A DNA stretch of 64,000 nt, taken from contig NZ_CP064787.1 of the NCBI RefSeq assembly GCF_017094505.1, forward strand, positions 2,666,001 to 2,730,000, written 5' to 3'. Position 1 is the stretch's first letter. Each line of letters starts with the position of its first letter. Shown here in pieces: positions 3,158-62,359 of the stretch. The notes beneath the pieces are model-generated. The model searched no databases, had not been told where the DNA came from, and saw only the letters and a program-made list of their open reading frames with translations. This stretch comes from Halapricum desulfuricans. Lineage in GTDB: Archaea; Halobacteriota; Halobacteria; Halobacteriales; Haloarculaceae. Both the position numbers and the translations under genes were made by a program.

Positions 3158-3235
3158 TACTGGTGGCTATCCCATTTCGAACTGATCTGGCACGCCGTCG
3201 TGCCAGATATCCTTCCGAACGTATAGCCACCAGTA
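3158..3235. repeat. 78-base hairpin element, copy A
   Basis: Thirteen bases, TACTGGTGGCTAT at 3158-3170, are perfectly complementary to ATAGCCACCAGTA at 3223-3235. An inner stem, GATCTGGCACG at 3184-3194, pairs with CGTGCCAGAT at 3199-3208. Read on the minus strand, the element aligns end to end with the hairpins at 58960-59037 and 45821-45897, sharing TACTG, GTTCG, GATAT and CAGTA. Stem bases differ between copies yet remain paired. It lies between the ribosomal operon and gyrB. The flanking bases do not form an exact duplication here. Its function is unknown. Confidence 0.75.
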
Positions 3236-45742: not shown

Positions 45743-45820
45743 CGGTCGCTCACACTGTCGCGACGGACAAAACCCTGTGCAGGGCGGCGGATATTGCTGG
45801 CATGCTGCCCGCGACTGTCA

Positions 45821-45897
45821 TACGACCGGCTGTCCGTTCGTGACGGTTTTCGGCACCCGGGTGCCGAAACACGTTCGAAAAGTTATCGCCGGCAGTA
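45821..45897. repeat. 77-base hairpin element, copy B
   Basis: It begins TACGACCGGCTGT and ends GCCGGCAGTA, with a perfect inner palindrome TTTCGGCACCCGGGTGCCGAAA at 45848-45869 region (centred on CCCGGG). It aligns base for base with copy C (TACTGCCGGCTGT...; CGCCACCCCGGGGTGGCG). TCA occurs immediately before the first base and immediately after the last, a possible three-base target duplication. It lies between the thioesterase and the GT39-like gene. Confidence 0.75.
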
Positions 45898-45979
45898 TCA
45901 TAGTGACCGTTGTAACGATTTGCCGGTGTGACGACACGCAGTCATGGGTCGACCCGGAACAGACGGACAACGGTCACGA

Positions 45980-58818: not shown

Positions 58819-58959
58819 GCGAGAGAGACGCGCCCGGCCGAGATGAAGACGTATTGATCTGTGTCAACAGGTGCCTCGAGTCGGAGCGAGGCGGGATCTG
58901 AGATCGGCGGGAACCACCGTGTCTCTTCGGACTCCGACGGTGGCAGGTGATCAGTATTA

Positions 58960-59037
58960 TACTGCCGGCTGTAAGTTCGTAAAGATATTCGCCACCCCGG
59001 GGTGGCGAATTCCTTCAGTTTGTTACAGCCGGCAGTA
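58960..59037. repeat. 78-base hairpin element, copy C
   Basis: TACTGCCGGCTGTAA pairs with TTACAGCCGGCAGTA over 15 bases, and GAATTCGCCACC-like inner arms (ATTCGCCACCCC with GGGGTGGCGAAT) are perfectly complementary. The ends match copy B and the body matches copy A read on the minus strand. TTA flanks both ends, a possible target duplication. The 58819-59064 gap holds no gene besides this. Confidence 0.78.
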
Positions 59038-59064
59038 TTAGTTCCCGGGGCCGCTAGAGGGAGT

Positions 59065-60802: not shown

Positions 60803-62359
60803 CCCGGTCATGACCATCGTCATCCCGAGTTCGTCGGCTTTCTCGATGACGTCGTCGTCGTTGACCGAGCCGCCGGGCTGGATGACCGCCTCGATGCCGG
60901 CCTCTGCGGCGGCCTCGATCCCGTCCGGGAACGGGAAGAAGGCGTCAGAGGCCATCACCGCACCCTCGGCGTCCTTGCCCTCGGCGTCGCTCTCGGCTTT
61001 CATCTTGGCGATCTCGACGGCGTCGACCCGCGAGACCTGTCCGGCTCCGACGCCGACGGTCTCTGTGCCTTTCGCGAAGAGGATCGCGTTGGACTTGACG
61101 TGCTTGATCGTCTGCCAGGCGAACAGCATCGACTCGAGCTGCTCGTCGGTCGGAGCCCGGTCGGTGACGACCTCCAGATCGTCGGGGGACAGCGACTGCA
61201 GGTCGCGCTCCTGAACGAGTCGCCCGCCGACCAGGTCTTTCTCGGTCAGCGTCTCGGTGGGCTCGAACCGATCGCTCACGTCCAGCACCCGGAGGTTGTC
61301 CTTCTCGAAGAGGACCTCTAACGCGTCGTCGGTGTAACCCGGCGCGACGACGACCTCTTTGAACGACTCGACAATTTGCTCGGCGGTGGCGTCATCACAC
61401 TCGCGATTGAGGGCGACGATCCCGCCGAAGGCGCTCTTGGGATCCGTCGAGAGCGCGTCGGCGTACGCCTCGCTGATCGAGTCCGCGACCGCCGCACCGG
61501 CGGGGTTGGTGTGCTTGATGACCGCACACGCGGGCTCGTCGAACTCCTTGACGATGTTCAGCGCGGCGTCGGCGTCGTTGTAGTTGTTGTATCCCATCCC
61601 CTTCGCGCCCTCGTTGAGCTGCGGGGCCGAGACGACGCTGGCCTCTTCGCAGGTCGGATCGGCGTACAGCGCGGCGTCCTGGTGGGGGTTCTCCCCGTAG
61701 CGCAGGTCGGCGACGCGGTCCTCGCTGCTGACCCGGCGAGTCGGAAACGTCCCGTCCTCGTCGCCCTCGACGCTGACCGTGCCAGCCTCGCGGTCGACGG
61801 TCACGCGGTCCTCGGCGAACCACCGCACTGCACGCGGATACGCCTTGAACTCGCCCCGATAGAGGACGCGCTCTTTGAGGTCGTCGACGCCGTCGCCCTC
61901 GAAGACGGGAACCGGTTCCTGCGTGACGATCGGCCCGCCGTCGACGGTCTCGTCGACGACGTGGACGGTACAGCCGGTCTGTCTCACGCCCGCCTCCAGT
62001 ACCTGCTCGTGGGCGTCCATCCCCGGGAACGCGGGCAGCAGCGACGGATGGACGTTGAGGATCGTCGGCTGGCTCTCGACGAACTCCTCGGTGAGGATCC
62101 GCATGTACCCGTCTAGGGTAATGAGGTCGAACTCGTACGCTTCGAGGGCTTCTTGCACCCGCAATTCGTGTTCACGGCGGGTTTCGTCCTCGTCTTTCGG
62201 GACGACTTCGGTCGGAATGCCGCGTTCTCGGGCCTGTTCGAGGACCGGCGCGTCGGGGTCGTTCGAGAGGGCGACGGCGAACTCCGCCCCACCCGGAGCC
62301 CGGTCGGCGATGTTCAGCAGGTTGCGGCCGCGATTGGATGCCATACCGGCGAGTTTCAT
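60779..62359 (-). CDS. purNH: PurN-PurH fusion: phosphoribosylglycinamide and AICAR formyltransferase
   Basis: The 526-residue protein joins two purine steps. Residues about 1-190 are PurN-like, with MKLAGMASNRGRNLLN at the start and NVHPSLLPAFPG (catalytic histidine) plus DETVDGGPIV (aspartate). After residue about 205 comes an AICAR formyltransferase module: RYGENPHQ, YNNYNDADAALNIVKEF, CAVIKHTNPAG (Lys-His pair), FGGIVALNRE and a GTRCFRHD end. The IMP cyclohydrolase part of bacterial PurH is absent, so IMP closure needs another enzyme such as archaeal PurO. The open frame above 62359 is not homologous. Confidence 0.92.
   Translation of the reverse strand: MKLAGMASNRGRNLLNIADRAPGGAEFAVALSNDPDAPVLEQARERGIPTEVVPKDEDETRREHELRVQEALEAYEFDLITLDGYMRILTEEFVESQPTILNVHPSLLPAFPGMDAHEQVLEAGVRQTGCTVHVVDETVDGGPIVTQEPVPVFEGDGVDDLKERVLYRGEFKAYPRAVRWFAEDRVTVDREAGTVSVEGDEDGTFPTRRVSSEDRVADLRYGENPHQDAALYADPTCEEASVVSAPQLNEGAKGMGYNNYNDADAALNIVKEFDEPACAVIKHTNPAGAAVADSISEAYADALSTDPKSAFGGIVALNRECDDATAEQIVESFKEVVVAPGYTDDALEVLFEKDNLRVLDVSDRFEPTETLTEKDLVGGRLVQERDLQSLSPDDLEVVTDRAPTDEQLESMLFAWQTIKHVKSNAILFAKGTETVGVGAGQVSRVDAVEIAKMKAESDAEGKDAEGAVMASDAFFPFPDGIEAAAEAGIEAVIQPGGSVNDDDVIEKADELGMTMVMTGTRCFRHD

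What the first reader, a model, noticed from the sequence alone, without database searches (positions are those of the whole stretch)
58960..59037. Family of 77-78 base intergenic hairpins with compensating stem changes
Copies at 3158-3235, 45821-45897 and 58960-59037 align over their full length. TACTG/CAGTA ends, GTTCG and the A+T-rich shoulder persist, while stems change in step, for example CTGGCACG/CGTGCCAG, CGCCACCCC/GGGGTGGCG and CGGCACCC/GGGTGCCG. All lie between genes. A mobile miniature element or a structured regulatory DNA or RNA fits.
Basis: seen in the sequence. Interest (0 to 1): 0.72.

Follow-up and report, generated by a model that had tools for sequence, protein, structure and literature searches.

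The report
Stop-codon-loving mini transposon of haloarchaea
The hairpins are copies of a tiny, gene-less mobile DNA element, widespread in salt-loving archaea, that copies three bases of its target as it inserts and very often sits exactly on a gene's stop codon, leaving the protein intact.

Summary
The finding is real. The three window copies belong to a family of 78-bp near-palindromes with at least 72 places in this 2.94-Mb haloarchaeal genome (probably Halapricum). It occurs in many haloarchaeal genera. [quoted passage not shown] Six uninterrupted pre-insertion sites were found in a sister species. No transposase with these ends was found, so the mover is unknown. The unexpected part is the address. 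In an independent set from named genomes, 23 of 50 non-coding insertions with intact duplication have the TNA exactly as a gene's stop codon, against 6-11% expected. The stop is regenerated and the gene is not truncated. The bias is weaker among near-identical (younger) copies and stronger among divergent (older) ones, so retention as well as targeting may act. A strand-specific RNA role is not supported: orientation at stop codons is 21:20, and sites are not orthologous. New family of a known kind with an unusual site bias.

The parts
58960..59037 (+). Subfamily B copy, 78 bp, TACTGCCGGCTGTAA...TTACAGCCGGCAGTA; identical copies at genome 528906, 701801 and 824902 (reverse strand)
58957..58959 (.). 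Left copy of the 3-base target duplication, TTA
59038..59040 (.). Right copy of the target duplication, TTA; in sister genome G001 the right flank runs on from TTA with no element, but the left neighbour is rearranged
3158..3235 (-). Subfamily A copy, 78 bp, TACTGGTGGCTATAC...; shared with G001 at the same site; flanks TGC/TGA (target duplication decayed by one base)
45821..45897 (+). Diverged 77-bp copy, TACGACCGGC...GCCGGCAGTA, flanked by TCA (45818-45820) and TCA (45898-45900); reduced to a short remnant in G001

Best explanation
A haloarchaeal MITE: a 78-bp, non-coding, near-palindromic element moved in trans by a cut-and-paste transposase not yet identified. Shown: end-to-end copies, conserved termini, a 3-bp TNA target duplication in a CTNAG-like target, single-target unoccupied sites in relatives, very recent spread, and strong over-representation at TGA/TAA stop codons, where the duplication regenerates the stop and leaves the protein unchanged. 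Inferred: that a DDE transposase of the kind that duplicates TNA (IS5/IS1031- or PIF-Harbinger-like chemistry, recalled from general knowledge) supplies the activity; that the stop-codon bias combines target choice (CTNAG) with better survival of insertions that spare both the coding sequence and the next promoter; and that the near-perfect palindrome matters for transposition rather than as an RNA.
For: 72 distinct places in the genome; 26 of 59 relatives match. Pattern TNATACTGYCGGCTRTA: 90 hits in G001 and none for the reversed control. TSD equal in 19 of 20, 29 of 35 and 66 of 83 copies, the last with CTNAG bias: C before 45 of 66, G after 39 of 66. Six of 14 predicted unoccupied sites found uninterrupted in G000; 2 of 14 are shared copies; 6 of 14 uninformative. 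Stop codon = TSD: 11 of 36 in this genome (background 9.9%, p=2e-4 computed with n=33); 23 of 50 in named genomes (background 8.3-11.3%, p 2e-12 to 9e-10; local control 16 of 276). 41 of 42 such genes show no coding-like continuation. Plasmid pHH400: the TSD is the annotated stop of an 825-bp M48 protease gene that is 825 bp in 4 relatives' records; Haloarcula marismortui has the same TCA with no element.
Against: No autonomous partner with TACTG ends in the 70 loci or stretches examined around PF01609 transposases (113 places in 12 genomes); PF13340 0 of 116 genomes; PF13359 0 of 116 over the cut-off. In 4 of 6 unoccupied sites the relative does not read TNA at the target position, more than I would expect. 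Stop-codon bias is absent in one set (2 of 19 true copies in G025 and G002).
Confidence: 0.92

Rival explanations
1. A REP/REPIN-like palindrome spread by a Y1 (HUH) tyrosine transposase (RAYT), acting on single-stranded hairpins.
For: Short palindromes in many intergenic copies, no coding capacity; Y1 transposases exist in 6 of 12 genomes rich in copies.
Against: The other 6 of 12 copy-rich genomes gave no PF01797 match (some are incomplete assemblies); only one of 17 Y1 loci has a convincing element end nearby; a 3-base duplication whose middle base varies and agrees on both sides is not expected of HUH insertion (recalled knowledge).
Confidence: 0.04
2. A structured RNA or bidirectional transcription terminator conserved for function at gene ends, that is, a domesticated element.
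For: Hairpins of -26 to -49 kcal/mol; 93.8% of stem cells paired and 24 double changes; enrichment directly after stop codons that rises with divergence: 15 of 57 near-identical versus 24 of 50 more divergent copies, Fisher p=0.027.
Against: No strand preference (21:20); no conserved gene partner; sites not orthologous; the number of pairs with double changes does not exceed shuffles (225 of 500); no Rfam match.
Confidence: 0.2
3. A coding, in-frame module like Rickettsia palindromic elements: 78+3 bases = 27 codons, and consensus A and B each have an open frame on both strands.
For: Open frames; the G001 copies in L234 and L235 appear, by eye on the flanks, to read through near the 3' end of a gene.
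Against: Only 6 of 70 and 2 of 36 copies lie inside called genes, although 74% of TNA sites in 264 kb are coding (4550 of 6190).
Confidence: 0.05

Closest known systems
Haloarchaeal MITEs of Haloquadratum walsbyi (PMC3119063, passages read)
   Same: Too short to code, inverted ends, target duplication, mobilised in trans, sometimes with no functional transposase left in the genome.
   Different: Those families share their ends with known transposons; here none was found. Here the whole element is one near-palindrome and has a stop-codon bias.
Small mobile repeats (SMRs) of Haloquadratum, 80-110 bp (PMC3119063, passages read)
   Same: Size, prominent inverted ends, ends unrelated to any known transposon.
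   Different: SMRs are reported to make no target duplication and to target other mobile elements; these make TNA duplications and mostly sit in intergenic DNA and at stop codons.
IS5/IS1031-type and PIF/Harbinger-type MITEs (recalled, not fetched)
   Same: 3-base TNA-type duplication in a palindromic target.
   Different: No PF13340 match and no PF13359 match over cut-off in 116 family genomes.
REPINs/BIMEs and RAYTs (search listing only)
   Same: Short dispersed palindromes.
   Different: Target duplication present here; no RAYT link.
Rickettsia palindromic elements (via PMC10969869, passages read)
   Same: Palindromic; here the length with its duplication is a multiple of 3.
   Different: Rarely inside genes here.

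Membership tests
MITE | Short, no transposase gene, many copies | tested here: met
   78 bp; 72 places
MITE | Terminal inverted repeats | tested here: met
   TACTGNYGGCTRTA-like at both ends
MITE | Target site duplication of fixed length | tested here: met
   3 bp; 66 of 83 named-genome copies, 19 of 20 recent copies
MITE | Unoccupied sites in relatives | tested here: met
   6 of 14 queried sites
MITE | Autonomous transposon with the same ends | tested here: inconclusive
   None in 70 loci or stretches around PF01609 transposases, 113 places in 12 genomes; search not exhaustive
IS5/IS1031-derived | TNA 3-bp duplication | tested here: met
IS5/IS1031-derived | IS5-type transposase with matching ends in a host genome | tested here: not met
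   PF13340 0 of 116; PF13359 0 of 116 over cut-off; PF01609 loci examined have no TACTG ends
IS630/Tc1-derived | TA duplication and DDE_3 transposase | tested here: not met
   PF13358 absent from own genome; duplication is TNA
REPIN/RAYT | Linked Y1 transposase | tested here: not met
   No PF01797 match in 6 of 12 copy-rich genomes; one convincing end near 17 loci
Haloquadratum SMR | No target duplication | tested here: not met
   Duplication present
Rfam RNA family | Match at gathering score | tested here: not met
   Only a tRNA in the window

The most novel reading that the evidence does not exclude
A transposable element whose niche is the translation stop codon: it targets CTNAG so that its TNA duplication rebuilds TGA/TAA exactly, and once there the hairpin is kept, as a portable, orientation-free 3'-end element (terminator or mRNA stabiliser) shared among haloarchaea.
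Probability: 0.25. Interest if true: 0.7.

Novelty: new member of a known kind. Interest (0 to 1): 0.47.

Why it matters
It explains a large class of intergenic hairpins in haloarchaeal genomes that could be mistaken for regulatory RNAs. It gives a clear case of insertion that preserves genes by duplicating the stop codon. It also poses a testable question: which enzyme moves it, and do the hairpins set mRNA 3' ends in archaea?

Tried and rejected
Autonomous partner: PF13358 in the own genome (none); PF01609 in 12 genomes (113 places; 30 loci returned plus 40 fetched stretches scanned): no TACTG ends. The only long pair, L099, is a 458-aa IS that jumped into a subfamily B copy: the same 1403-bp unit is 100% identical in L071 and L081 and 99.9% in L092 without the flanks. 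Lone ends in G001, G002, G003 and G005 were fetched (some G002 and G005 ones were left out) and are truncated or degenerate copies. De novo TNA-flanked inverted pairs over 425 loci (2.27 Mb) gave only element pairs and chance-like hits. PF13340, PF01797 and PF13359 gave no partner.

Viral context: no match in phage records or viral contigs. Papers: exact end sequences searched (57 papers hold one; the 20 listed have no haloarchaeal subject); topic searches gave Haloquadratum (PMC3119063) as the nearest described set. I saw no description of this family in the passages read, but supplements were not read.

Gene-truncation artefact for the stop-codon result was tested and rejected. One plasmid example is ambiguous: the CPBP gene with a TSD stop is 852 bp versus 957 bp in H. 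marismortui.

Full report
Observation. The three window copies are real and similar well beyond chance. A covariance model built from 20 copies finds 72 distinct places in the 2,940,338-base genome at E <= 0.001 (my count from its list, both-strand duplicates merged; only 150 of 1636 candidates were scored). Two main subfamilies exist: A (TACTGGTGGCTATAC...) and B (TACTGCCGGCTGTAA...). Four B copies at 528906, 701801, 824902 and 2724960 (the 58960 copy) are identical in sequence.

Range. Of 59 genomes searched (own and relatives), 26 match. Contig lengths shared (566,822; 201,806; 28,050) identify handle G002 as Halapricum hydrolyticum, so the window's genus is probably Halapricum. Copies sit on haloarchaeal plasmids. 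None was found in phages or viral contigs.

Mobility. Each edge carries the same three bases, TNA: 29 of 35 loci in this genome, 19 of 20 recent B copies in G001, 66 of 83 in named genomes (64 TNA, 2 GNA), and 18 of the 19 true copies in a G025/G002 set (its twentieth row, L269, is not a copy and I dropped it). The target leans to CTNAG: C before in 45 of 66, G after in 39 of 66. Of 14 joined-flank queries from G001, six were found uninterrupted in G000 (one also in G005), two are occupied in G000 too, and six gave no match across the junction. Against a simple picture, only two of the six unoccupied sites still read TNA in the relative; the others read CGG, CGG, CGA and TCC. I take this as divergence of rare T/A bases in G+C-rich DNA, but it is not explained. 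Insertions into and beside other copies occur: L220, L224, L229, and tandem copies at 62236 and 62317 of the genome.

The three window sites. The 3158 copy is at the same place in G001 (95% over the whole 1601 bases). The 45821 copy survives in G001 only as a remnant. The 58960 copy is absent in G001, where the right flank continues from TTA but the left flank is rearranged, so gain versus loss cannot be told there.

Stop codons. In reconstructed unoccupied sequence, the TNA is exactly a gene's stop codon in 11 of 36 copies of this genome; 9.9% of non-coding-or-stop TNA sites in 264 kb are stops (p=2e-4 with n=33). In an independent set from named genomes, 70 copies were examined: 23 stop, 27 intergenic, 6 inside genes, 14 without an equal TNA pair. 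Backgrounds there are 8.3% (all TNA) and 11.3% (C- or G-flanked); other sites within 400 bp give 16 of 276. The result holds at stricter gene calls (21 of 50, 18 of 51). The control slightly favours the result, because the occupied stop itself is not in the control. A few of these loci are from the same genome as G002. The bias is not seen in 19 copies from G025/G002 (2 of 19) and is modest in recent G001 copies (5 of 20). Pooled by nearest-copy identity, the stop share is 15 of 57 in near-identical and 24 of 50 in more divergent copies (p=0.027; 135 copies classed, 8 inside genes and 20 without an equal TNA pair set aside). This fits partial targeting plus better survival; nearest-copy identity is a rough age proxy and the pooled set overlaps the others. 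Genes are not truncated (41 of 42). The pHH400 M48 gene is 825 bp with the element at its stop and 825 bp in H. marismortui, H. marina, CBA1115 and JP-L23; the CBA1115 copy next to that stop is decayed. Gene calls are from my own codon-usage script, not from curated annotation, except on the plasmids.

Structure. Stem cells pair in 93.8% and the covariation score exceeds all 500 shuffles, but the number of pairs with changes on both sides does not (225 of 500). Orientation at stop codons is 21:20 with one tie. This argues for symmetry at the DNA level and against a strand-specific RNA.

Partner. No transposase with these ends was found. A part of the 113 PF01609 places was not looked at, though most of these repeat elements that were. 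The assignment to IS5/PIF-like chemistry rests on the TNA duplication and is recalled knowledge.

Verdict. A new haloarchaeal MITE family with an unknown mover and a striking stop-codon address; ordinary in kind, unusual in placement.

Noticed in passing
window 45910-45971: A second, unrelated miniature element (TGTAACGATTTGCCGG...CGGAACAGACGGACA) abuts the 45821 copy; it aligns to 65-66-bp hairpins at genome 14577, 1632345 and 2460467 (score 59-74 against shuffle maximum 31). Its longer ends look like TA + GTGA..., a TA target.
   Followed up: partly
L220, L221, L356, L388, L395: A further element with ends TACGGTCGGTTGTA / TACAACCGACCGTA and TNA edges, apparently a sister family; some B copies are inserted in or beside it.
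   Followed up: partly
L099 1008-2498 (G001): An insertion sequence with a 458-aa transposase, five copies in G001, has landed inside a subfamily B element.
   Followed up: yes
window 58870-58960: The 58960 copy lies about 90 bases from a rearrangement breakpoint between this genome and G001.
   Followed up: partly
L240, L249, L252, L255 (junction position): Four of six unoccupied sites differ from TNA exactly at the target triplet, more than the flank divergence suggests.
   Followed up: no
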